Assembly: GCF_003434055.1 (NCBI RefSeq)
Contig: NZ_QVEX01000002.1
Span: forward strand, 235,314 to 299,313
Source: Enterocloster aldenensis
GTDB lineage: Bacteria > Bacillota > Clostridia > Lachnospirales > Lachnospiraceae
Direction: 5' to 3'
DNA length: 64,000 nucleotides
The translations under genes were made by a program, and so were the position numbers. Positions 3,973 through 19,838 of this stretch are shown piece after piece. How positions within the stretch are numbered: position 1 is the stretch's first letter; every line of letters begins with the position of its first letter. The notes under the pieces are model-generated. The model had not been told where the DNA came from, made no database searches, and saw only the letters and a list, made by a program, of their open reading frames with translations.

Positions 3973-4503
3973 TTACATCTTTAAATCCTTATTCTTCCGG
4001 TTCCTGCACATATAGGTATTGGCTTCATCCAGCATACGCATCAGTTCCAGCGCGCTGCGGAATGCGATATAATGCGTTCCTGTGTAACTGCACTGGATCC
4101 TCCCCTGCATGGAAGAATTCTGTCTATACAGCACATGGACCAGGATGACTGCCTTCGCAGCTGTCACATAGGGGAACATCTTCCCTGCCACATCCTCTTT
4201 GACCAGGACTTTATCGGACTTATTTTTCGTTTTCCCCCTAAGCGCCCGATACTGCTGCGCCCTTTCCTTTTGCAGGAAACGTGGTTCTGTGGTTGCCATG
4301 GGGACGCCTACCATTTCGCATACCTCATCAAGGGCCAGTATCAGCCCATGGATTCCTTTAAAGCTTACAGGACGGGGCAGATGATAATTCACAATGATAC
4401 CGTATGGCACATTATTTTCATTTCCATTGATACACACAAGCATCATGCATGCCCTGTCCGTACCTGCCATTTCAATCTGACGGCTCTTTTCTTCACTCAG
4501 CAT
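3973..4503 (-). CDS. Conserved-looking hypothetical protein, 176 aa
   Basis: I do not recognise a family. The protein is soluble, with no signal peptide or membrane helix. It has a compact first half (CMMLVCINGNENNVPYGIIV, then FKGIHGLILALDEVCEMVGV) and a basic, Gln/Lys-rich middle. The second half ends in HYIAFRSALELMRMLDEANT and a basic tail. The start has AAGGAG upstream. It sits between a giant surface protein and the O-antigen-ligase-like gene, in the same direction with short spacers. A cytoplasmic role in expression, or in supplying precursors for the surface layer, would fit its position but nothing in the sequence proves it. Confidence 0.6.
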   Translation of the reverse strand: MLSEEKSRQIEMAGTDRACMMLVCINGNENNVPYGIIVNYHLPRPVSFKGIHGLILALDEVCEMVGVPMATTEPRFLQKERAQQYRALRGKTKNKSDKVLVKEDVAGKMFPYVTAAKAVILVHVLYRQNSSMQGRIQCSYTGTHYIAFRSALELMRMLDEANTYMCRNRKNKDLKM

Positions 4504-4560: not shown

Positions 4561-7500
4561 TTACGGTGTTTCCCTCATCCATCTGCCATTTTCATCCACC
4601 GGATATCCATCCGGGGTCATTTCATTTACATATAATGTTCCCATCGGCCTTCCGTCCTGGCCTCCGGTGCTGAAGAAATACCAGTACTCCCCAAGCTTCT
4701 GCCATCCGGTTGCCATGCCTCCGGTAAACTGGTTCAGATAGTACCACTTCATGTCCTTTGCATCATAGTACCAGCCCATGACTAAACGTCCAAAGTCAGC
4801 TCCCAGATTATCATTAAGATAGTACCAGTGTCCGCCTGCGTCCATGTACCAGCCGTAATCCATGATACCGGCCGCATTAAAATGATAGGTGCAGGTCTGC
4901 CGGGCATCCTCGTACTTTATGTTGATCCATTGGTCTTTGATGGTTCTTCCGCTCCTCAGGATAAAGGACCATTGTCTTCCATCCGTGCCAATGCTTTCCC
5001 ACCGTCCTTCCGTGCCGACGGCATAGGTCCTGTAATCATTAAAGGTTGTTCCCGGCCCAAGGCTTCTGCCCCCGCCGGAGCCGCCGCGTGAGCCGCCTCC
5101 GCCGCCTCCGCCGTTGCCTCCCGGCCGGTTGGGATTGTCCGGGTTATCCGGATGGTCCGGGTCATCGGGGTTGTCCGGCGGATTGGGGTCATTAGGATCA
5201 TTGCCGCCGGAAGTGATGGAATCCACAAGGGCTTTTAAGGTATCATAGGTGTCCAGAAGCTCGTCCACGGTCGGACGGTAAATCCTGTTGGCAACTTCCA
5301 GTGCAATATCAATTGCATCGCTTAACTCTTCCTTATCCTCTTCGCTTACCGATGGATTGTCCTTTAATGCCTGGGCTATGGAAATCTGGGTCAAAAGCTT
5401 CTGCCTTGCCTCCTGCCACTGGGTATCATCTTCCATCTGGTAGAGCACATGCAGGGTCAGATTCTTTGTGACAGGTTCGCCCGTGTCATACCCGTTGTTC
5501 GAGGAGGCTGTCCTTCCCAGCCCATTATATTCCCATACAACCCCGGTAATGGGATCCGTATAGGCATCGAATATATCCAGGTCCATGAATCCCTGGGCAT
5601 CCTCCAGGGCCGTGCCGGACCTGACCTTGATTATATGTTCCACGGAACGCTTATCATCGATGATCCTCACTTCATGGGCCTTCAGGTATGTAAGTACATA
5701 GGTGCCTTCCACATTTGCATCAAAGGACACAACTCCTGTGAACCCGGAATCCGCGTCATCCGGATCCGGCTCCATGGGCACCTGCGTACATGTATATTCC
5801 CCGTCCAGGTCCTCCACGTTCCACAGCTGGTAATCCGTATAGCCTCGCATGCTGCGGTCAAGGACAGCGTATATCCTGATATCCGGCTCCTTGTCCACAC
5901 CGGGCGGGATATCCTTGTTGCTGCCTCCCACCTGTCTTGTCAGTACGGACGATAAGGTCCACGGTACCTTTACCGCATCATTGCCAACTTCGGCTTTTGC
6001 AGCCTCGGACTCTGATGCCTTGGGCGCCCGCTGGGTGAACTTGACTGTGTAGAGCACGTCAACCCCCGCTGTCATGGCGTCCTGGTCGCTGCTGTTATCC
6101 GTAAGTCCGTCAATCAGGTCCGCCATCCTGTCATCTGACAGGTCAAGGGCCACCGCCCCTGTCTTAGGCGTATAGTCAATGGAAGCATTACCGGGTGTCG
6201 CTGCCGACACTGCGGCATAATAATTTGCCTGAAGCACCAGGTTTCCCTCCGGCATGGTGATGGTGGGGTTCCTCCTGGTCTTATCGGCCAGTGTCAGCCT
6301 GCCGATCAGCGCGCTCCACTGCCGGAATGCCTGTCCCTGGCTGTTGGTGGTTTCCGCATCCAGGGAAATCAGATCCCCGGCCTTTACCACTGCTGTCTTA
6401 TCGTCGTCAAAGTCAACGGTCACGCCGCCCCGCACGATTTTAGTGATGAATCCGCCATTTGTAAGGGCTATGGTATAATCCTGCTGTTCCTGTGAATTTC
6501 CTATGACCGCTACCTGGGTGCCTAAAAGTATCTTATCGGCAGCCCCTGTGTCCTCTCCCGGCTGCTTTGCAACCACCACGTATAACTGGTTTGACTCCAG
6601 CCCGCCAAGAACGGCACGCGGCGTGGCGCCGGAAGACATGACCCATCCGTCCTCATCTGCACCGGGGACATCCATTACATCCCCTTCAATATTAAGGATT
6701 GCATACAGGGTTCCCGGATCTGCAGGCTCAACCACCACCTGTTTCATACCGGTCCCATCGTCCTGTACATCGTAGTTGCTGCCAAGGGCCGGTACCGTCA
6801 CTCGCGAAGGCGGGCTGAAGGTACCCGGGTCCAGGTTCTCCGGAAGGATTACCCCCACATCCGGGTTGGCGCCCTGGATCATCTCATAGACATAGTAGCT
6901 TGTACATGGGTTTAACCCGGTAAAACCGGCATTCTTTAACTGGCTTCCCAGTTTGGTCCCAACCACCTTATAATCCATATCAGTCAATGCGTACCTGCGG
7001 TTTTGGTTGGCGCCCGATACGCCCACCTTCCCGCTTCCATCGCTGCCTATGGTGCCCTGGGCATCCGGCATTGTCAGTATGTTGTCATCGCTGAGCCCGA
7101 TGGGGATGAACCTTGCCGTATAGGTCTGGTCCGCATTGATAGTCTGCGGGCCCTGCATCCTGTTCCCGTTTTCGTCAAACCAGCCGTCAAACATGTAGAA
7201 ATTATCGGGATGGGTGCTGGGAAGTATCAGGGACGACCAGGATGTGCCTATCTCCACATGGCTTGTCTTATTTCCTTCTATGGCGCCGTGAGGCCCGGAT
7301 ACAAACTTCAGGTCAAACCATTCGCCTTCTGTCTCCTCAAAATTCGCAAATAATTTGATGGAGGTATTGATTACCGTGTCATCTGCCAGTTTTGGTCCTG
7401 TTTTATTGCTTCCGTTGGATGTGGCCTTATACCAGCCGTCAAAACTGTAATGGGATGAAGGCGTGGGTATAAGCCCTTCCGTTACCTGGGCCAGGGTATT

Positions 7501-8961
7501 GTCCCCGGACTTTTTGACAAACTTAGGGGCCGTACTCCCGTTAAAGAATCCGTTCTGGCCATTGTAGAATTCTACTTTTGCCCAATAGTTCTCATCCGTC
7601 AGGTCTTCGGTGTAGGTGATGGTTACGGTACCACCCTGAAGATTCGGGGTCAGGTTCAGTTTCTTAGTCTCCTGGTTCAGGGATACCTCTGACAGGCTGT
7701 CCTCCCATACTATATTAGGAGGATAAACATAGCCTGGCATTTCATCCACGTCAACTTCCACCGGCACACCGGGATTCACGGCCCGCGTCTCCTCTTCCCG
7801 CAGGATATTGCCGTGGTTATCCATGCGCTTTACCCGGAGTATGGTTTCAAAGCTGGGGTCCAGTCCATATTGATAGGTAAATGTTATGGCCTGGTTTGGC
7901 ATCTTTCCTGTAAAGTAATAGTCAGATGTATTAAGACTGACCCCTGCATCCTCTGCAGAGATGACGCCCATACCGTCCAGGTCCGTGATTCCTCCGTCAG
8001 TCAGTTCCGCTGATTCAAGCAGATAGGAATTAATGACTGCCGGTTCAATGACATAGCCGGATTCCACCGGAAGGGTCCTGCTCTCCGGTGCTTTAATCTG
8101 ATTGCCTTCCATATCCACGTACCGCACCGTGATTTGGAATTTTTTCGCCGGGTCAGGTTCATAACGATAAGCCGCTGTCAGGCTGTCATTGGGCATGCTG
8201 CCCCTTACCGCATTGGTGGATGTGTTGATGCTGGCCCCGCCCTCTTCCATGGTGCCCTGTCCGCTTGCCTCGCCGTATTTGCGGACTTTATTGTTCTTTA
8301 AGAGCACGGACTTAAACCGGTATCCCGGTATATCCCTTCTGTAGGTTGCGGAAATAGGATTGTTGGCCATCTGTGTACTTTCCCAGGATGATTCGAAGAA
8401 TTTCCTTAAATCAGGATCCTCATAATCAGCCGGCCATCCGCTGCTTCCATCCGCCTCATCCCTTGCCGTGTTAAAGTCCCTGTAATGTTCTACCCTGAAT
8501 GTATAGGGAGTTGTCTCATTACTTTTCCACACCGCGTTGTAGGTTGTCACGGAATCATACGGGAAGGCATACGGGAGTGTCTCCACCCGGTTGCCGCTGG
8601 TTCCATACCAGCCGTCAAATGTATAGCCGTCCCATGTAATACCGCTAAAATCCGGTACCTTTGGCCTTGCCCCGGACCCAAAGTCATCCGTGGGCAAACC
8701 TGCAAAGTTGGCGGAACTGGTCAGGGGACTGCCTGCCTGCCCGCTTGCCACAAACAGATTGCCCTCCATGGCCCCGCCGGATGCCACACCGCTATAGCTG
8801 GAAAGCTGTACTCCCGGCCCATTCTGAGGATTGAACTTAATCTTAACCAAATCCCCAAAATCAACCGCATACGCCGGGTGTCCCGGGACAGCCATGGAAA
8901 ATACCATGACTGCCGCCAGCATCCCTGCCAGCTTTGATTTTATATTATATCTCTTTCTCAT
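4561..8961 (-). CDS. Giant secreted cell-wall-binding repeat protein (InlB-B, MucBP-like, choline-binding-type repeats), about 1466 aa
   Basis: The start at 8961 has AGGAGG six bases upstream and opens a signal peptide ending near residue 32 (GHPAYA). Then come repeated InlB-B type modules (YTFDGWYGTSGNRVETLPYA; SHYSFDGWYKATSNGSNKTG) and MucBP-like modules (ITVRYVDMEGNQIKAP). A helical FIVAR-like stretch follows near 1230-1300. A linker of Asn-Pro-Asp repeats and poly-Gly leads to about 150 residues of aromatic GWYYD/WYYLN choline-binding-type repeats that should hold it non-covalently to the wall. There is no LPXTG motif. It shares architecture and its last residues (NEMTPDGY) with the upstream 2073-aa protein, so the two are paralogues. 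Ligand unknown; adhesion or wall architecture is inferred. Confidence 0.9.
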   Translation of the reverse strand: MRKRYNIKSKLAGMLAAVMVFSMAVPGHPAYAVDFGDLVKIKFNPQNGPGVQLSSYSGVASGGAMEGNLFVASGQAGSPLTSSANFAGLPTDDFGSGARPKVPDFSGITWDGYTFDGWYGTSGNRVETLPYAFPYDSVTTYNAVWKSNETTPYTFRVEHYRDFNTARDEADGSSGWPADYEDPDLRKFFESSWESTQMANNPISATYRRDIPGYRFKSVLLKNNKVRKYGEASGQGTMEEGGASINTSTNAVRGSMPNDSLTAAYRYEPDPAKKFQITVRYVDMEGNQIKAPESRTLPVESGYVIEPAVINSYLLESAELTDGGITDLDGMGVISAEDAGVSLNTSDYYFTGKMPNQAITFTYQYGLDPSFETILRVKRMDNHGNILREEETRAVNPGVPVEVDVDEMPGYVYPPNIVWEDSLSEVSLNQETKKLNLTPNLQGGTVTITYTEDLTDENYWAKVEFYNGQNGFFNGSTAPKFVKKSGDNTLAQVTEGLIPTPSSHYSFDGWYKATSNGSNKTGPKLADDTVINTSIKLFANFEETEGEWFDLKFVSGPHGAIEGNKTSHVEIGTSWSSLILPSTHPDNFYMFDGWFDENGNRMQGPQTINADQTYTARFIPIGLSDDNILTMPDAQGTIGSDGSGKVGVSGANQNRRYALTDMDYKVVGTKLGSQLKNAGFTGLNPCTSYYVYEMIQGANPDVGVILPENLDPGTFSPPSRVTVPALGSNYDVQDDGTGMKQVVVEPADPGTLYAILNIEGDVMDVPGADEDGWVMSSGATPRAVLGGLESNQLYVVVAKQPGEDTGAADKILLGTQVAVIGNSQEQQDYTIALTNGGFITKIVRGGVTVDFDDDKTAVVKAGDLISLDAETTNSQGQAFRQWSALIGRLTLADKTRRNPTITMPEGNLVLQANYYAAVSAATPGNASIDYTPKTGAVALDLSDDRMADLIDGLTDNSSDQDAMTAGVDVLYTVKFTQRAPKASESEAAKAEVGNDAVKVPWTLSSVLTRQVGGSNKDIPPGVDKEPDIRIYAVLDRSMRGYTDYQLWNVEDLDGEYTCTQVPMEPDPDDADSGFTGVVSFDANVEGTYVLTYLKAHEVRIIDDKRSVEHIIKVRSGTALEDAQGFMDLDIFDAYTDPITGVVWEYNGLGRTASSNNGYDTGEPVTKNLTLHVLYQMEDDTQWQEARQKLLTQISIAQALKDNPSVSEEDKEELSDAIDIALEVANRIYRPTVDELLDTYDTLKALVDSITSGGNDPNDPNPPDNPDDPDHPDNPDNPNRPGGNGGGGGGGSRGGSGGGRSLGPGTTFNDYRTYAVGTEGRWESIGTDGRQWSFILRSGRTIKDQWINIKYEDARQTCTYHFNAAGIMDYGWYMDAGGHWYYLNDNLGADFGRLVMGWYYDAKDMKWYYLNQFTGGMATGWQKLGEYWYFFSTGGQDGRPMGTLYVNEMTPDGYPVDENGRWMRETP

Positions 8962-8971
8962 CCGGTTCCTC

Positions 8972-11900
8972 CTACTGAATCCATACACCGTCGGCGTCTG
9001 TCCGGTATCCGTCCGGTGTTATTTCATTCTTATACATGGCGCCTAAGGGACGTCCTGCGCCGCCTCCATAGGTCCACCGCTGTCTGACGGGGTCATAGGC
9101 ATATACGCCCGCCCCTACAGGGGAAAAGTAGTACCATTTCCCGTCTATCTTCCTCCAGCCCTGGGCCATCACGCCACTGGCCGGATCCAGGTAATACCAG
9201 TTGCCGTCTCCTGTATCCAGTCTCCAGCCTGTCATCATTTTCCCGTAAGGTAATTCAGTCTCCGTGTTGCAGTAATACCAGTTTCCTGCCATATCACGGA
9301 TCCAGCCAGTCTGCATGATACCCTTGTCGTCAAAATAATACCAGCCGCTGTCTTCCTGTCCGGCTCCTTCAGGATAATAAAGCTTGGCCCACATGCCGCT
9401 CAGGCGTGTTCCTCCGTTGAGCACGAAACTCAACTGTCTCTCACCGGACGGCCCGGTGCTCTCCACCCAGTTGCCGTTGGTACCTATCTGATAGTTCAAT
9501 GGCGCGGTTCCAGCAAATGGCGCCCTCTTACTTCCGCCTCCGCCGCCGCCTCCACCTTTGCTGCCGCCTTTGTTCCCGCTTTCCTGAAGGTCGTCGTAGT
9601 GGTCATACCGTCCATCCAGCAGTTCCTTGTACGGAGCCGTCCTATCCTTCAGCTCGCGCAGGGCTTCCTCCAGCTGGCCGATGGTTGCCTTGGGTTCTTC
9701 ACGGTCCAGGACTTCCAGCGCCGCCTCAATGTACTCCTTCAGCTTCTTGCTCTCGCCCTGCTTCAGGAAATGGTCATCGCTTATGCCGATGGACTCCCGG
9801 ATAGCCTCCTCCAGCTCCCTGCGGACATCGTCTAATTCTTTCTCATTGTTATCATAATATGCGTATACATAGGTCTTGCGGGTTATCTTGCGGTCCGGTT
9901 CAAACTCCCTGTAACGGTCCTGGCGGTAACTCCAGCCCAGATAGCTGTACTCCGCCCCTGCCGGGCTGATGAAATAGTCAAGCTGCGCTTCCAGTCCCCC
10001 ATACTCTGACTCATAATAGGAATCTGCCGGGGACTCCTCCCTGCGCACCTTGAACCAGTAGCGGTAGATATCCGGGGCCGTGTTATTGAGGAAATACACC
10101 CGGTACGCGCGGTTATACACCATTATGTACCGCCGTCCTTCCGTGGCAGTGAAGGTGAACAGGCCGCCCGTTTCTTCCGGTTCATAATCCATAGGCACCA
10201 GGCTTACCACCATTTCCGTATCCGGGTCCCCGCTGATTTCATACAGCTGGTAGTCCATCATATCCACATCCTGCCTGCCTAACTGCACATACGTATTGAA
10301 GGATGCCTCCGATGCGCTTGCACGGTTAACCTTCCTGCCGTTCACATATCTTTCGATGGAAACGTCCAGACCCCAGGCCGCCTTGTAGGATGCTTCATGG
10401 TCCGTATCGTAGCTGCCTCCCATCTTGATGGCATTGGATTCCGATGCGCGTACGCTGTTCTTTCTATATACCACCTTATAGGTCACGTCCGCATGGTTTA
10501 CGTCCAGCAGCTCCCGGTCCGCGTCCGTGGTAAGCTCATCCTCCAGAATCGGTATCTCTCCCGGATCCAGGGCCAGTTCCTCACGGCTGCCTCCCCGTAC
10601 CTCGTCCACCACAGTGGCGTTGCTTGGGGTTGCCGCCCGTTCATATACTGCTGTCAGGACCAGGTTCGTATCCGGCATGGTGAAGCTGGCTTCCCTGGAA
10701 TTAATCCTGTTTTCCATACCTTCAACCGAGCCGATGATGAACTTCCAGTGGGAGAAGGGACGGTTTTCATCGTTAACTGCTTCCGCCTTGATTTTCACTA
10801 AATCGCCTTTGTGGGCCTCTTCATAACGTTCTTCCCCTACGGCTTCATCCCCCACGCTTACCACCTCGCCGTTCAGTGTTTCGATGATGTAGGCCGGAAG
10901 TTCCAGGTCGCCGCCCGGATCCGTAGTGATGACGCTGCCATCTTCCAGGCAGCTTTCCGCAGTGACTGCGCTTAGGCCTTTTGGACGGGCCACCACCGTA
11001 TACTCCTTGTTATAGTCAAGACCGCCAAAGCTTACGCTTCCCGGGTTGCCTGACACCCCCTGCCATCCGCCTGCGCCGGTCTGGGGCGTGGTTACCACAT
11101 GGCCGCTGCTGTCCAGTACCGCATAATCCGATGCCGGGTCCGCCGGCCGGATAATCAGCCTCGTCTTACCCTCGTCTTCTTCGTCATATAGGATCTTATA
11201 GTTGGTATCCACCACCGGTGTCAATACCTCCACACCGTTGCTGAGCGTACCTTCCACATCCCCAATCATGTTTCCGGTCTGTACCGTTGTCTGTCCGGTT
11301 GCCTCGTATACCAGATAACGCATGCCGGGATACAGGTTGTCAAATACGGTGCGGCTTGTAAGTATGTTGCCCTTGTTGACTGCCAGCACCTTACCATCAA
11401 GGTCCGTAAGGATATATTTATACCCCTGTGTGGTGCCGAATACCGTGATGCGTCCCTTGCCCTGGCTGTTAAGTCCTGCTGCCGGTTCCGGGTCCGTCAC
11501 CTCCGTGCCGAAGATGGCCGGGTCCGGATAGAACTGGATAGTATAGGTCTGGCCGTTTACCAGGTCCATATCACCGTCCACCGGTTCGCCCTGTACATAC
11601 CAGTCATCCACCAGATAGTTTACCTCCGGTGTATAGGAAGGAAGGCTTGCCGTAATGTCCCCCCATTTCTTATCAAAGGTGGTGCGCAGGGTCAGGGGCT
11701 GCCCTGCATCAATGGAACCATGGCTGCCTGCTGCAAAACTGATATTGATCCAGGCATCCGGATTCTCTTCAAAATAGGCGGTTATGGTTGCCGAAGCCGC
11801 GAACCGGTAATCCTGGGGCAGGATTGTTTCCCCGTTGTCCAGGATCCCGTTTCCATCCGTGTCAATAAACCAGCCTCCGAAGCGGTAATAATTGTTCACC

Positions 11901-15214: not shown

Positions 15215-16855
15215 TTAAAAATTCAGCCGTTCTTCCCCCGGCAATCCGTCAAGCAGTGGTTCCATATTACTCCCTGCAATCAGACCGCCCGCATATTTAT
15301 CTTCCTTATTATCAGAATCATAATGATAGAATCCGGTTCCTTCTTCCCCCTTATGCCATCTTGGCTTAAACTCGTCATCTACCCTGGCCGCAAACCGGCT
15401 GTTTATGATTATAAGCCATCCCCCGTCTTTATCCCTAACAACCTTTTTATTTCCAGTGATGATCTTTCCATTGGTATTGACCACCCTGTAAGAATTTTCA
15501 TTCTCCCTGACCACGCCGTAACCATATTCCTCATCTGCTTCCAGCCTAAGTCCGTTTATATAGTAGGAATCCTTTACCCTCTTGAGGCGGTTGCGGTTTC
15601 CGTAGGCAACACCATCGCTTTTAAACCCAAAGGTGTACACCCCGTCCTCCAGCTCGACCTTCAGCTCATTTCCGGTCTGCATGGAGCCGTCATTCAGCTC
15701 GTCCGGGGAAAAGAAATAAAGGTCCGCCTTCTCAATACCATATATATTCCCCTCTATGAAATCCTCCGATGACCATGCGTCCATGTCATACTGGGCCACA
15801 AATGTACTGCGGGTGTCAAAGAGAACAAACCCTGTCTGCATCCTGCCAAGCCCGTCAAACGCATAATAACGGTCATTTACTTTCTTTATCTTATTCTGAT
15901 ATATCTTTCCATTCTGGTCCGTGCGCCACCAGCTGTACTCCCCGTCATCAGAGTCATCCTGTATCAGATTGTCCGACGGATACATCCAGAACCAGGAGTT
16001 TCTCAAAAGGCTTCCGCCGTCATATCCCGCAAAGAACTTAGCCGGCACATCGCTGGTGGGGTTGCTCTTATCCGCATTGCTGACGCTCGCCACCTTGGTC
16101 CACCAGGGAAGCATGATTCCATACTCGTCAAAGCCGTATGTGCTGCCGTCAATATTCTTTTGCACCAGACGGCCGCCATTGCTTTTCACCTTCTTGGAGC
16201 GGTTGTTAAAATACAGCCACACCTGGTCATATTCGTCATAATCCCTGCCGCTGATGTCACTGGACAGGTCCTCAAGTCCCCTTATCTCCAGCTGCGAATA
16301 ATCCAGCCAGCTCTCAGTCTTTAAGGCGCCGTCCGCATCCGCATAGTACACGCCTTCCTCCAGTGGATTGTCATCCTCGTCCAGCTGATTCCCATCCTCG
16401 TCAAACCATCCGGTCAGCATGCGGCCGCTTTCATCAAATATGTAACTCCTGCCATCCACGGTCCTTTTAAAAGAAGATGCGGTGCCGCGGTACGCCTTAC
16501 CGTTGGCGCCAAAATAATACCACCCGGCCTCATGTCCATCCTCATCCGCCTCATCCGCCAGGACCCATGTGTTTTCAGCCCGCGCCCCATCCTCAAACAC
16601 ATAATACAGGCTGTTTCCCTGTTCAATGAAACAATCCCTCATCATGATTCCCTGGCCGCCCAGATAGAACCAGGAATCCCTGGACTGCTTCCATGTATTT
16701 TGCAGCGGCTCATCATTCTCATCTAAATATCTCCACTCCTCACCTTGGCTCATCCATCCCTCGACCGCATAGGCGGTCACTGTCTGCAATTTAGTCATTG
16801 CAAAAGCCGTAACGGCCAGGGCGCCGGCAATAAGCATGATTCTCCTTTTCTTCAT
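15215..16855 (-). CDS. Secreted cell-wall-binding repeat protein, 546 aa
   Basis: A signal peptide (residues 1-30, ending VTAYA) is followed almost entirely by choline-binding-type repeats, for example WMSQGEEWRYLDENDEPLQN, GWYYFGANGKAYRG and DRYYAFDGLGRMQTGFVLF. They run through most of the chain and include acidic insertions (DEADEDGHEAG). I see no catalytic domain, so a scaffold or wall-coating role fits best. In this operon it is the third gene, between the 3D-domain protein and the 2073-aa protein. It could present the wall-binding module in trans or bridge the giant proteins to teichoic acids; that is inference. Confidence 0.85.
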   Translation of the reverse strand: MKKRRIMLIAGALAVTAFAMTKLQTVTAYAVEGWMSQGEEWRYLDENDEPLQNTWKQSRDSWFYLGGQGIMMRDCFIEQGNSLYYVFEDGARAENTWVLADEADEDGHEAGWYYFGANGKAYRGTASSFKRTVDGRSYIFDESGRMLTGWFDEDGNQLDEDDNPLEEGVYYADADGALKTESWLDYSQLEIRGLEDLSSDISGRDYDEYDQVWLYFNNRSKKVKSNGGRLVQKNIDGSTYGFDEYGIMLPWWTKVASVSNADKSNPTSDVPAKFFAGYDGGSLLRNSWFWMYPSDNLIQDDSDDGEYSWWRTDQNGKIYQNKIKKVNDRYYAFDGLGRMQTGFVLFDTRSTFVAQYDMDAWSSEDFIEGNIYGIEKADLYFFSPDELNDGSMQTGNELKVELEDGVYTFGFKSDGVAYGNRNRLKRVKDSYYINGLRLEADEEYGYGVVRENENSYRVVNTNGKIITGNKKVVRDKDGGWLIIINSRFAARVDDEFKPRWHKGEEGTGFYHYDSDNKEDKYAGGLIAGSNMEPLLDGLPGEERLNF

Positions 16856-16916: not shown

Positions 16917-17783
16917 TTACTCCTCTAAATACACGTATTTATTTTTCCTGCCGTAAAGGACCGCCTCTTCGTGGGTATCAAAATAGATGTCCAGCTGGTT
17001 TCCCTTTACCGCCTTCCCGGTATCCTCCACCGTGTAAACCACGCCATCAATTACAATCCGGGTGCCAAGCAAAATCACGGACGGGTCCGCGGCAACGGTA
17101 TGGGCTGCCTTGGGTACGGTTTCCGTCTTGGTAAGAATTTCCTTCTTTTCCCCGCAGCACAGTGAACAGCTGCAATAGCCCGTGACCTGGAACTCCCCCA
17201 GATAATCCATTCCTTCTGAAGGCCCATCGGAATGTCTGTATACAGGACAGGTTTTCCGCCCGAACTGCTTTGCTTCCTCATAACTGGCAAAATAAATCCG
17301 CAGCTTCTCCCTGGCCCCCTCCTCCACCTTATCCTCAATCACATAGGAATTTCCATCAATCAGGACCGTATCCCCTATTTTGAAAACAGACAGTACGCCA
17401 GCCGCCGTACGCCCGTTAACAGGAACCGCACCGGAATACGTCAAATCCTTCCCATCCGAACTATAGGCAGTCACCTCAAGCTCCCCCAGATACGTAAACT
17501 CCGGTTGGGATACGGCCTGGACCACTGCCCGGGACGGTGCCTGAGGCGGGTTTAAATCCATCGCCTCCACCGGATACGGATTGTTAATGGTTCCCGCTCC
17601 CCCCGGATTCGTCCAGGCCTGTCCTGCACCTACCGTATAGAGCTGGGCCAATGTAAATCCGGCCGCCAGGACAGCGGGACCGCAGCCCAGGAGGAATGGC
17701 CTGAGATATTTCCTCATCATATTATGCCTTTGACAGGATTTCCTGAATTCCGTCACCCTGTATTCATGAATGTTATCTGTCAT
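16917..17783 (-). CDS. Membrane-anchored 3D-domain protein (double-psi beta-barrel, putative peptidoglycan-acting), two domain copies
   Basis: A basic N-terminus leads to one membrane helix (about 28-48), then a linker and two tandem modules. The second has the hallmark of 3D domains: TGYCSCSLCCG, then AADPSVILLGTRIVIDG, VEDTGKAVKGNQLDIYFDTH, with three conserved Asp. The first copy keeps the fold pattern (AYSSDGKDLTYSGAVPVNG through EEAKQFGRK) but has lost the Cys cluster and the Asp-Thr-Gly, so it is probably non-catalytic. 3D domains occur in RpfB/YabE-type and MltA-like enzymes that cut glycan strands. The ATG at 17783 has a G-rich ribosome site (CAGGGGGCG). It may remodel the wall for display of the large surface proteins. 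Confidence 0.85.
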   Translation of the reverse strand: MTDNIHEYRVTEFRKSCQRHNMMRKYLRPFLLGCGPAVLAAGFTLAQLYTVGAGQAWTNPGGAGTINNPYPVEAMDLNPPQAPSRAVVQAVSQPEFTYLGELEVTAYSSDGKDLTYSGAVPVNGRTAAGVLSVFKIGDTVLIDGNSYVIEDKVEEGAREKLRIYFASYEEAKQFGRKTCPVYRHSDGPSEGMDYLGEFQVTGYCSCSLCCGEKKEILTKTETVPKAAHTVAADPSVILLGTRIVIDGVVYTVEDTGKAVKGNQLDIYFDTHEEAVLYGRKNKYVYLEE

Positions 17784-17801
17784 CCCCACGCCCCCTGAGC
17801 A

Positions 17802-18578
17802 TCACAAATTATTATGCATGGAATCCGAATCCATATCTTTCTGCGTTAAAAACTTCCATGTGCTGCCTCCTAAACTTTTATCCCAGGTAATATCGCAGTA
17901 TCTCCACTCTCCGTCAATCCAGGTCCTGTTCCATGCATGGTTTCCGGCATATACAGGTTCACATATCAGGCCCGCGTTCCTGCACAGCATCAGATAGGCG
18001 GATACATATCCCCAACACACAGCGCTGCCGTTCATGACCGCATCATAGATGGTCCTGTTTTCCAGTGTCTGGTCATAGGAGACATTATCGTAGACCCAAT
18101 TATAAAAATATTCAGCTTTTTCCCTGTCCCCCAATGTCCTGCAGGCCTTAACCACACCGGAGAGCCTGTCCTGTACCTGTCTGTGTTCTGATACTGCCTT
18201 TTCCGGGTTCCCACATGAAACATAGATGGCATACTTCCCATTTTCATCAAATGAATACAGCGTCACTTCTTCTTTTCCCAGATATAGGTACCGGTAATAA
18301 TATCTGCCAAAGGAAAATGCCTCCTCCTCAGAATCAAAAACAATACCGGTTTTTATAAAACCGCCAATCTTCCCCCCTTCTTTAAGTGCATCCATCACAG
18401 CTTCCCCAAGGTTTTCAAATCCCGTATTCCGGCTGGTCATCTGACTGGCTGACCGGCCGGAGACTGCCTGGCCAGCAGATGATTCCGGCTGCTGCATTGC
18501 GAATGAATGTTCCTCAAAATGAATGTTCATGATAAACAAAAAAGCAAAAAAAAGGCAGATGGAACTGAACTTCTTAAT
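17802..18578 (-). CDS. Secreted transglutaminase-like cysteine protein with non-ATG start
   Basis: The transglutaminase-like core has the Cys-His-Asp triad in order: NGSAVCWGY (Cys188), AGNHAWNRTW (His214) and WRYCDITWD (Asp229). Bacterial members act as proteases, peptide cyclases or cross-linkers outside the cell. No ATG gives a sensible start: the first ATG (18530) lies inside the hydrophobic stretch. In frame upstream is KKFSSICLFFAFLFI, a perfect signal-peptide opening, preceded by the codon ATT at 18578 with AGGG seven bases before it and a stop codon just upstream. So translation either starts at ATT or the ATG was mutated; TTG at 18539 is a poorer alternative. This is the first gene after the invertible segment. 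Confidence 0.8.
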   Translation of the reverse strand: MKKFSSICLFFAFLFIMNIHFEEHSFAMQQPESSAGQAVSGRSASQMTSRNTGFENLGEAVMDALKEGGKIGGFIKTGIVFDSEEEAFSFGRYYYRYLYLGKEEVTLYSFDENGKYAIYVSCGNPEKAVSEHRQVQDRLSGVVKACRTLGDREKAEYFYNWVYDNVSYDQTLENRTIYDAVMNGSAVCWGYVSAYLMLCRNAGLICEPVYAGNHAWNRTWIDGEWRYCDITWDKSLGGSTWKFLTQKDMDSDSMHNNL

Positions 18579-18602: not shown

Positions 18603-18628
18603 TACAACTGAATATTTCTTTTGTTGTA
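18603..18628 (+). repeat. Left inverted repeat of the invertible segment (IRL)
   Basis: 26 bp that match the reverse complement of 18876-18901 at 25 positions; the only difference is position 7 (T here, G in the other). Each copy is itself a partial palindrome (TACAAC at one end, GTTGTA at the other), as expected for a site bound by two recombinase subunits. It lies in the leader of the surface operon, 24 bp before the putative ATT start of the transglutaminase-like gene. Confidence 0.9.
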
Positions 18629-18737
18629 ATTGAAAAACAGGGAGGGGGCTGATAAAACGGAGGAATTACTGACTATGGAAAAATTTAAGAGAATTGATTC
18701 TGAAGTTTAAGAAAAAGGCAAATAATAAATAATATGC

Positions 18738-18774
18738 AAAAATATCCAAGTTGGTTTAATTTGTGACCAAGCTT
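18738..18774 (-). terminator. Possible leftward attenuator or terminator inside the invertible segment
   Basis: On the minus strand AAG-C-TTGGT pairs with ACCAA-CTT (8 bp with one bulged C, 10-base loop) and is followed by GGATATTTTT. On the plus strand the same hairpin has no T-run, so termination would depend on orientation. The stem is short, so strength is doubtful. Confidence 0.45.
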
Positions 18775-18801
18775 GATTGTTATACCCTTTTTTATCGAAT
18801 T

Positions 18802-18830
18802 ATTTTTAAAAATATGTAGAATTTTGTCAA
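18802..18830 (-). promoter_or_regulatory. Candidate leftward promoter inside the invertible segment
   Basis: TTGACA (18830-18825) is the only perfect sigma-A -35 hexamer in the segment. At 16 or 17 bp spacing the -10 would be TAAAAA or AAAAAT, each four of six matches. It points at the surface operon. A TATAAC further on lacks a convincing -35. Confidence 0.4.
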
Positions 18831-18858
18831 TAAATGTAGTATACTTTTTCTAAATCTT

Positions 18859-19755
18859 TCAGGAGTATCCTAAAGTACAACAAAAGAAATATTCCGTTGT
18901 ATCCTGCAATAGCAGCTTCATTTTTTCAAGCTGCAATCTGTGCTGGCTCCCACTTTCCTTTGTATAAATCCTGGTCGTATTAATATCCCTGTGTCCCAGG
19001 ATATCCGCTAATTTTGACAGGTTTTTTTCTATTTCATAATATGTCCTTGCAAAAAGGTGCCTTAGGTTGTGGGGAAATATCTTTTCATTCCTGACTCCGG
19101 CCTCTATTCCCAGGGCTTTCATTTCCCTCCATATATTACTCCGGTCCAATGCCTTTCCGCTTTTTGTGACAAATATCATTCCTGTGCTTATATTCTTTTT
19201 TGATGCATAAGACTGCAGAATTGTACAAAGCTGTCTGGTTAACAGCACGGTCCTTATCCTGCCCTTACACTCAATCTCCGCCTGTCCCTTATGGATGGCT
19301 GCCACTGTGATGAACGACAGTTCAGATACGCGTATCCCGGTTACGCAGATGGTTTCCAGCACAAGGGCCAGCCGTTCGTTACCATTGGCAAAAGCCGTTT
19401 TTACCAGACGCTCATATTCGTTCTTTGTCAGTTCCTTCTGCTCAGGATAAAAGGAACTTTTGCTGATTTTTAAAAACTTACTTTCACAGCCATCCCATCC
19501 ACAATATTTGAAAAATCCGTTAAGTGCGGCTATGACGCAGTTGATGGTGACCGGGGTCAAACGTTCCCGCAGGTCTGCTTTCCATAACAGTACCGCCTCC
19601 TTGGTAACCGGCCCATCTCCTATGAACGCTTTAAACTGCTTTAAATAATGTCTGTATTTCTTTACTGTCTCCCTGCTCCTTTCACAACTTTCCAGCCATT
19701 GTCCATACTCCTCTATCTTCTGGTAAGTCATGATTCTTTCATTTTTTCTTTTCAT
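18859..19755 (-). CDS. XerC/D-like tyrosine recombinase, predicted DNA invertase
   Basis: 298 residues with an N-terminal SAM-like DNA-binding domain (KKYRHYLKQFKAFIGDG) and a complete catalytic domain: Arg142 (VTGIRVSEL), Lys164, His229 and Arg232 (FPHNLRHLFA), His255 (ILGHRDINTT) and nucleophile Tyr264 (RIYTKE). I chose ATG 19755 because AGGAGG lies just upstream; the frame could extend to 19860 but would then cover a terminator hairpin. The last codons overlap the right inverted repeat. Inversion would replace the tail TLGYS with a single Asn after CC, so both orientations give a full-length enzyme. Related recombinases next to inverted repeats control surface phase variation in Bacteroides and Clostridioides difficile. 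It is transcribed towards its own target. Confidence 0.9.
   Translation of the reverse strand: MKRKNERIMTYQKIEEYGQWLESCERSRETVKKYRHYLKQFKAFIGDGPVTKEAVLLWKADLRERLTPVTINCVIAALNGFFKYCGWDGCESKFLKISKSSFYPEQKELTKNEYERLVKTAFANGNERLALVLETICVTGIRVSELSFITVAAIHKGQAEIECKGRIRTVLLTRQLCTILQSYASKKNISTGMIFVTKSGKALDRSNIWREMKALGIEAGVRNEKIFPHNLRHLFARTYYEIEKNLSKLADILGHRDINTTRIYTKESGSQHRLQLEKMKLLLQDTTEYFFCCTLGYS
18876..18901 (-). repeat. Right inverted repeat (IRR), lying inside the recombinase coding end
   Basis: Reverse-complement partner of 18603-18628. It encodes residues TTEYFFCC near the C-terminus of the recombinase. The single mismatch with IRL falls on the third base of a Thr codon (ACG or ACT), so it is silent whichever copy is present. 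Confidence 0.9.
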
Positions 19756-19802: not shown

Positions 19803-19838
19803 AAAAAAACATCCAATATCCCCTTGAGGATGTTGGAT
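19803..19838 (-). terminator. Hairpin with T-run in the recombinase leader (terminator or attenuator)
   Basis: ATCCAACATCC pairs with GGATATTGGAT (one G-T wobble) and is followed by G and seven T on the minus strand. It lies about 50 bases before the recombinase start. It may end transcription from the broken PTS genes, or attenuate the recombinase gene itself. Confidence 0.75.

What the first reader, a model, noticed from the sequence alone, without database searches (positions are those of the whole stretch)
18603..18901. Invertible switch in front of a giant surface-protein operon
A 247-bp AT-rich segment is bounded by 26-bp inverted repeats, 25 of 26 identical (18603-18628 and 18876-18901). 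It sits between an intact tyrosine recombinase and the first gene of a 16-kb operon of wall-binding proteins. Seen in sequence: the repeats, the recombinase active-site residues, candidate promoter and terminator elements inside. Known: tyrosine recombinases flip promoters of surface genes in Bacteroides and C. difficile. Inferred: the whole operon is phase-variable.
Basis: partly seen in the sequence, partly recalled or inferred. Interest (0 to 1): 0.93.

Follow-up and report, generated by a model that had tools for sequence, protein, structure and literature searches.

The report
Flip switch overlapping its own recombinase
In a gut bacterium, a 247-letter DNA segment lies between two mirror-image repeats, one of them inside the gene for the enzyme predicted to flip it; flipping would likely turn on a large block of cell-surface protein genes, which is predicted to be off in this genome.

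Summary
In detail: inverted repeats identical at 25 of 26 positions frame 247 bp, the only inverted pair of that strength within 1.5 kb in the 64-kb window. The right repeat is not between recombinase and operon but inside the recombinase's 3' end.

Comparative evidence strongly supports a promoter switch. Of 91 loci with room (window included), 80 have such a pair just downstream of the recombinase; upstream, 1 of 102. The core differs between loci (51 versions) yet matches, inverted, within 73 of 76 pairs. Two sets of orthologous loci lie in opposite orientations between parallel flanks. Promoter direction follows segment orientation in 59 of 59 strong comparisons. By that promoter the window is predicted OFF, the promoter pointing antisense into the recombinase.

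The operon, or part of it, sits behind the same cassette in six other loci, from Enterocloster to Hungatella. Inversion in the window itself was not observed; its assembly is not held. The family may correspond to a published Clostridia inverton group (PMC11892184). The site that codes the recombinase's own C-terminus is the new part. New variant of a known kind.

The parts
18603..18628 (+). operon-side inverted repeat (arm 2); with one base on each side it reads as a 28-bp 11-6-11 site
   Evidence: 25 of 26 identical to the other arm inverted
18876..18901 (-). recombinase-side inverted repeat (arm 1), inside the recombinase ORF, coding for ..TTEYFFCC
18629..18875 (.). 247-bp predicted invertible segment, 27.5% GC
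   Evidence: segments of more distant relatives are found in both orientations
18817..18845 (+). predicted promoter: -35 TAGAAT, 17-nt spacer ending TGTAG, -10 TATACT; points to the recombinase in this orientation (OFF)
   Evidence: TGTAG-TATAAT-type motif 18-32 nt from an arm, pointing outward, in 20 of 21 loci picked by repeat type (19 toward arm 1, L096 toward arm 2; none in L005); coordinates
18746..18775 (.). central imperfect palindrome, predicted weak hairpin; counterpart of stronger hairpins in relatives
   Evidence: -9.1 and -11.8 kcal/mol on the two strands here; about -22 to -37 in 7 of the 11 relatives folded (L004, L006, L016, L041, L085, L093, L096)
18859..19755 (-). tyrosine recombinase, 298 aa from Met36 of the 333-aa ORF; predicted to flip the segment
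   Evidence: PF00589 E 1.7e-27; catalytic residues invariant; XerC/XerD-like PDB matches
17802..18578 (-). first operon gene, transglutaminase-like; likely starts at an ATT codon at 18576-18578
   Evidence: PF01841; start
16917..17789 (-). 3D-domain protein
   Evidence: PF06725 E 1e-13
15215..16855 (-). choline-binding-repeat protein, 546 aa
   Evidence: PF19127
8972..15193 (-). 2073-aa surface protein with Listeria-Bacteroides repeats and choline-binding repeats
4561..8988 (-). 1475-aa surface protein with InlB-type, MucBP and choline-binding repeats
3973..4503 (-). 176-aa protein without Pfam match; homologues are the first gene behind the switch in L004, L085, L093-L096
2261..3946 (-). Wzy_C (O-antigen ligase family) membrane protein; operon membership uncertain because of a hairpin at 3958-3921

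Best explanation
The 247-bp segment is very likely an invertible promoter, predicted to be flipped by the tyrosine recombinase whose gene contains one of the two inverted repeats, and it would switch a surface-protein operon on and off. Shown by sequence: the repeats, the recombinase, the overlap of repeat and gene, the operon, and the same cassette in relatives. Predicted: in the present orientation the one promoter motif kept across related loci (18817-18845, + strand) faces away from the operon and into the recombinase's 3' end, so this genome is in the OFF state. Predicted: strand exchange in the matching core (TATTTC as read on the + strand of the left repeat) turns the segment round; the promoter then lies about 30 nt inside the operon-side repeat and fires into the operon. 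The central palindrome, a strong terminator-like hairpin on both strands in 7 of 11 relatives folded and weak here, would keep recombinase read-through out of the operon (inferred). Predicted side effect: inversion changes the recombinase's own end from CCTLGYS to CCN and starts or stops antisense transcription over its 3' end.
For: Repeat pair at the recombinase 3' side in 80 of 91 loci against 1 of 102 upstream, and in 0 of 90 base-shuffled downstream regions at score 14 or more. Sites located without using the core: 73 of 76 cores match inverted, 51 different cores, shuffled partners mean 2.1, maximum 7; the window itself was mis-hit in that test, but its two 6-bp cores are identical. Orthologous loci in opposite orientation: L085 and L096, recombinase flank 85% and downstream flank 79% parallel, segment reversed; L070 against L088 and L089 likewise. 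A protein 99.3% identical to the L004 recombinase ends where the inverted form of L004 would end. Promoter-defined state agrees with relative segment orientation in 59 of 59 strong comparisons, shuffled maximum 54. The first gene beyond the far repeat runs away from the switch in 65 of 73 loci. The operon or part of it lies behind the same cassette in L001, L002, L003, L005, L082, L084. Clostridia invertons of similar geometry next to tyrosine recombinases changed orientation in culture (PMC11892184, section 8 and passages of section 10).
Against: No inverted copy was seen in the window's own clade: window, L001, L002, L003 all have the same orientation, and the cluster representatives P0002-P0005, P0009 and P0057 all carry the tail TLGYS of that orientation. 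11 of 91 loci lack the pair. The window's -35 is poor and its hairpin weak, so strength and direction of transcription are uncertain; a TTGACA-17-AAAAAT site points the other way. Among weak segment comparisons 4 of 41 disagree with the promoter rule. One of the 7 ON calls, L046, looks wrong: its segment runs parallel to the L013, L017, L018 and L020 segments, whose best site points the other way. 18 of 80 segments could not be called.
Confidence: 0.88

Rival explanations
1. Invertible, but the window is in the ON state: the TTGACA-17-AAAAAT site at 18830-18802 (- strand) drives the operon now, and inversion turns it off.
For: 10 of 12 consensus matches, pointing to the operon; TTGACA is kept in L001, L002 and L003.
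Against: Its -10 is poor and varies; it would have to read through the central palindrome; I saw no consistent counterpart among the other loci listed (not tested further), whereas the TGTAG-TATAAT motif is kept and flips with the segment.
Confidence: 0.15
2. A cwpV-type switch: a promoter outside the segment (for example the recombinase's own) reads through, and inversion makes or breaks a terminator.
For: Recombinase and operon are on one strand and the segment holds a hairpin; the cwpV switch works this way in C. difficile (passages of PMC2784873).
Against: The central palindrome folds on both strands and should act much alike in both orientations; an outward promoter site is present in 62 of 80 segments.
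Confidence: 0.07
3. Relic: the recombinase and repeats no longer recombine in this lineage and the segment is fixed.
For: All four loci of the window clade have one orientation.
Against: Recombinase ORF uninterrupted with the catalytic residues, arms and core still matching. Four assemblies are a tiny sample, and 55 of 62 callable loci family-wide are OFF anyway.
Confidence: 0.06
4. The repeats are attachment sites of an integrated element, or merely a cruciform or terminator, not an inversion system.
For: Integrase-family enzyme next to a repeat.
Against: The sites are inverted and 78 to 353 bp apart in 80 of 91 loci, with cores matching in inverted sense, and segments are found in both orientations.
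Confidence: 0.02

Closest known systems
Inverton group 139 with tyrosine invertase group 35, mostly Clostridia, hCom2 community (PMC11892184; sections 6, 7, 8 read, passages of others)
   Same: Short Clostridia invertons next to a tyrosine recombinase in non-regulatable orientation; the Clostridium sp. D5 example has 26-bp repeats about 205 bp apart, the geometry of this family; orientation shifts in culture. The authors already suggest co-evolution of invertase and repeat sequences.
   Different: Membership not testable here (group sequences not available; another member, of Intestinimonas, has 14-bp repeats as given). The sections read do not describe repeats inside the recombinase ORF, cores private to each locus, or the surface operon of this window.
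E. coli fim switch, FimB/FimE (as described in a passage of PMC2784873, otherwise recalled)
   Same: Promoter between inverted repeats, nearby tyrosine recombinases, surface structure downstream.
   Different: In fim (recalled) the recombinase genes do not contain the repeat; here the repeat is part of the coding sequence of a single recombinase.
C. difficile cwpV switch and RecV (passages of PMC2784873 and PMC5903667)
   Same: Clostridial cell-wall protein switched by a segment of similar size (195 bp, 21-bp repeats) and a tyrosine recombinase.
   Different: RecV is not near cwpV and acts on several switches; the cwpV promoter lies outside the segment.
Bacteroides fragilis invertible regions with Mpi (passage of PMC5903667)
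   Same: Invertible promoters of surface loci.
   Different: One master serine recombinase for at least 13 regions; here co-resident cassettes have different repeats and each its own recombinase.

Membership tests
Invertible promoter (inverton) | inverted repeats flanking a short, mostly non-coding segment | tested here: met
   the last recombinase codons lie in it
Invertible promoter (inverton) | promoter inside that would drive the adjacent gene in one orientation | tested here: inconclusive
   met by motif and comparison; poor -35 in the window and no transcript data
Invertible promoter (inverton) | both orientations occur | tested here: inconclusive
   met in homologous loci, not seen in the window clade
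Tyrosine recombinase, Xer-like | Phage_integrase domain with R-K-H-R-H-Y | tested here: met
Tyrosine recombinase, Xer-like | sites of two inverted arms around a short core | tested here: met
   11-6-11 layout in the window; core matching in 73 of 76 loci
Inverton group 139 / invertase group 35 | clusters with that group by repeat and protein sequence | not testable with these tools
cwpV-type switch | promoter outside the segment, terminator formed in OFF only | tested here: inconclusive
   palindrome folds on both strands and an internal promoter motif is present, which speaks against it; no transcript data

The most novel reading that the evidence does not exclude
The switch rewrites its own flipper. 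One crossover site is the end of the recombinase gene, so each inversion exchanges the recombinase's C-terminal tail and turns an antisense promoter over its 3' end on (operon OFF) or off (operon ON). The segment thus sets its own flipping rate: OFF silences the recombinase and is stable, ON frees it and is short-lived, which would explain why 55 of 62 callable assemblies are OFF. Because co-resident loci have different cores and each its own recombinase, a genome carries several independent one-bit memories.
Probability: 0.22. Interest if true: 0.75.

Novelty: new variant of a known kind. Interest (0 to 1): 0.56.

Why it matters
If right, it gives Clostridia a recognisable self-contained switch cassette (recombinase, embedded site, promoter, central hairpin, far site) that can be found from sequence alone and in many cases read for ON or OFF state in an assembly. 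Where the stop lies inside the segment (10 of 80 loci, among them the window clade and [Clostridium] asparagiforme) the annotated C-terminus itself should report orientation. It predicts that a roughly 15-kb set of wall-binding surface proteins in a gut commensal is made by only part of the population. The many different cores make a natural collection of candidate orthogonal recombinase-site pairs.

Tried and rejected
Own genome: not held, so neither paralogues in it nor its reads could be examined. A first run of the repeat statistics gave, at score 14, 70 of 91 downstream and 12 of 100 upstream, because 18 loci from the genome search had not been turned to the recombinase strand; corrected (which also adds the window), whose numbers are used. 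Its shuffled control (0 of 90) comes. Dropped before the counts: L079, L080, L081, L086 (same places as L001, L002, L004, L070) and L011 (run of N). The 91 still contain near-duplicates (such as L013/L014, L053/L054, L060/L062, L065/L069, L088/L089). In one search, of 91 loci 12 had fewer than two motif hits, 3 were dropped for odd spacing (L059, L067, L076) and 76 were counted; the three mismatches are WIN, L002 and L101; in WIN and L002 the scan hit a spot inside the segment instead of the true far arm. Consensus promoter scanning of the window alone was uninformative. The viral collection gave one relative, 47% identical, not used. The structure model of the recombinase has mean pLDDT 75.3 and a tail below 50 (322-333), so it says nothing on the effect of the tail swap. 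Literature: searches found no paper; one search listed PMC11892184 and PMC5903667, one search listed PMC2784873, one search gave a listing only; one search was swamped by unrelated words; one search failed; one search listed one review, not opened. No claim that the embedded site is absent from print goes beyond these searches.

Full report
OBSERVATION. No other inverted pair within 1.5 kb in the window reaches score 16; this one scores 23, and the best in 40 first-order Markov windows was 17. With one flanking base each side the left site reads as 11-6-11: two inverted arms (TTACAACTGAA / TTACAACAAAA) around TATTTC; the right site has the same six central bases. This is the layout of Xer-type sites (recalled).

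ANATOMY. Everything runs on the - strand: recombinase, repeat, segment, repeat, operon. The recombinase ORF does not stop before the repeat. It reads through it (..DTTEYFFCC) and takes TLGYS and its stop from inside the segment; inverted, it would end CCN. In most listed relatives the protein letters match the same repeat read in another frame, TAC AAC .. TTG TTG TAA, which supplies the last eight codons and stop: of the 120 best of 7997 scored homologues, 88 end this way, 7 have this plus a tail, 10 use the window's frame and 15 fit none of the patterns used (DNA was seen only for the loci). Among the 80 loci with a repeat pair the stop lies before the first repeat in 50, within it in 20, inside the segment in 10.

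FAMILY TEST. Loci were collected by recombinase similarity alone (78, 30, and the window; five dropped, see Tried and rejected). A repeat pair of score 15 or more lies at the 3' side of the recombinase in 80 of 91 loci with room; at the 5' side in 1 of 102. Misses: L028 (has a pair further out), L045, L052, L058, L068, L076, L090, L091, L101, L105, L108. A pair found by similarity will tend to have matching cores, so the core was tested separately: two palindromic motifs per locus were located without using the four central bases. The cores then matched in inverted sense in 73 of 76 loci, with 51 distinct cores; shuffled partners gave 2.1 on average, 7 at most. A match within each locus, with change between loci, is what strand exchange demands (inference). 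In the nine genus genomes with two or three fetched pairs the co-resident repeats all differ, in G006 by a single base in the stretch both share.

NATURAL INVERSIONS. L085 and L096, from two genomes of one genus, share recombinase flank (85%) and downstream gene (79%) in the same direction, while the segment between is reversed. L070 against L088 and L089 shows the same: flanks about 76% and 72% parallel, segment 88% and 93% identical reversed over 59 bp. L035 is reversed against L032, but their downstream flanks do not match. P0012 is 99.3% identical to the L004 recombinase and lacks the tail YSEAWAR, as the inverted L004 would; a contig edge could mimic this, since its longest contig is 2904 bp. 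In the window's clade (window, L001, L002, L003) all copies are parallel, 83-92% identical.

PROMOTER AND STATE. Among 21 loci picked by repeat type, 20 carry a TGTAG-TATAAT-type motif (loosely matched in L004) 18-32 nt from a repeat, pointing outward: 19 toward the recombinase, and L096, the reversed one, toward its downstream gene; L005 has no match. The pattern was drawn from these data, so its recurrence is descriptive. Strict sigma-70-type sites 10-60 nt from a repeat occur in 49 of 80 segments against 94 of 1600 shuffled ones; the window is not among the 49. With both rules 55 loci are OFF, 7 ON, 18 uncalled; in all 59 strong segment comparisons between called loci parallel means same state and reversed means different state (8 reversed; shuffled mean 42, maximum 54); among 41 weak comparisons 4 disagree, and the ON call of L046 is doubtful. 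The window's motif (18817-18845, + strand) points into the recombinase: predicted OFF. The competing TTGACA site on the - strand is kept in L001-L003 only as far as seen.

HAIRPIN. Twelve segments were folded. L004, L006, L016, L041, L085, L093 and L096 have central hairpins of about -22 to -37 kcal/mol on both strands; the window, L001, L002, L003 and L088 only about -5 to -12. The terminator and insulator role is inferred.

OPERON. Transglutaminase-like, 3D, choline-binding, 2073-aa and 1475-aa surface proteins and a 176-aa protein follow with small gaps. A hairpin at 3958-3921 may end the operon before the Wzy_C gene. Behind the same cassette, L001 and L003 have the first four genes, L002 the first three (its contig ends), L005 (Hungatella hathewayi) the first four and more, L084 the 3D, choline-binding and giant genes, and L082 the choline-binding and giant genes; homologues of the 176-aa gene come first in L004, L085 and L093-L096. 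Across the family the cargo varies: of 48 co-directional first genes in L001-L078, 38 were scanned, giving zinc-ribbon proteins (5), Band_7 proteins (4) and many single families, so the cassette is not tied to surface genes. The first gene, by mechanical ORF calling, is co-directional in 65 of 73 loci.

KNOWN AND NEW. Jin et al. (PMC11892184; sections 6, 7, 8 read, passages of others) report inverton group 139, 33 invertons of which 32 are from Clostridia, next to tyrosine invertase group 35, suggest co-evolution of invertases and repeats, and show orientation shifts in culture for two members. The geometry of one member (26-bp repeats, about 205 bp apart) fits this family; identity could not be tested. 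New here, as far as the searches reach: the repeat as coding end of the recombinase, cores private to loci tested without using the core, orientation readable from promoter and in some clades from the C-terminus, and the conserved link to this surface operon.

Noticed in passing
window 18576-18578 (-), start of the first operon gene: The transglutaminase-like gene seems to start with ATT (ATC in L001, L002, L003): same ribosome site and 7-nt spacing, an in-frame stop two codons upstream in all four, and a conserved signal-peptide-like reading frame; the Hungatella homologue (L005) has ATG near the same place. A rare AUU/AUC start on a phase-variable operon could be a second brake.
   Followed up: partly
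L001-L108: By the promoter rule 55 of 62 callable loci are in the OFF orientation; it could be biology or culture and assembly bias.
   Followed up: partly
L004 and proteins P0011, P0012: C-termini of near-identical recombinases differ as the two orientations predict; protein databases may serve as orientation records.
   Followed up: partly
window 3973-4503 (-): 176-aa protein without Pfam match; homologues are the first gene behind the switch in L004, L085 and L093-L096: an unnamed family repeatedly behind such switches.
   Followed up: partly
window 19811-19838: Terminator-like hairpin just upstream of the recombinase, with a T run on the other strand too by eye, apparently separating it from the PTS gene upstream.
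   Followed up: no
window 18815-18839 (+): TGTAG occurs twice, 20 bp apart, at the -35 and -10 regions, also by eye in L001-L003, L005-L010, L012, L082 and L084; it may be a regulator site.
   Followed up: no
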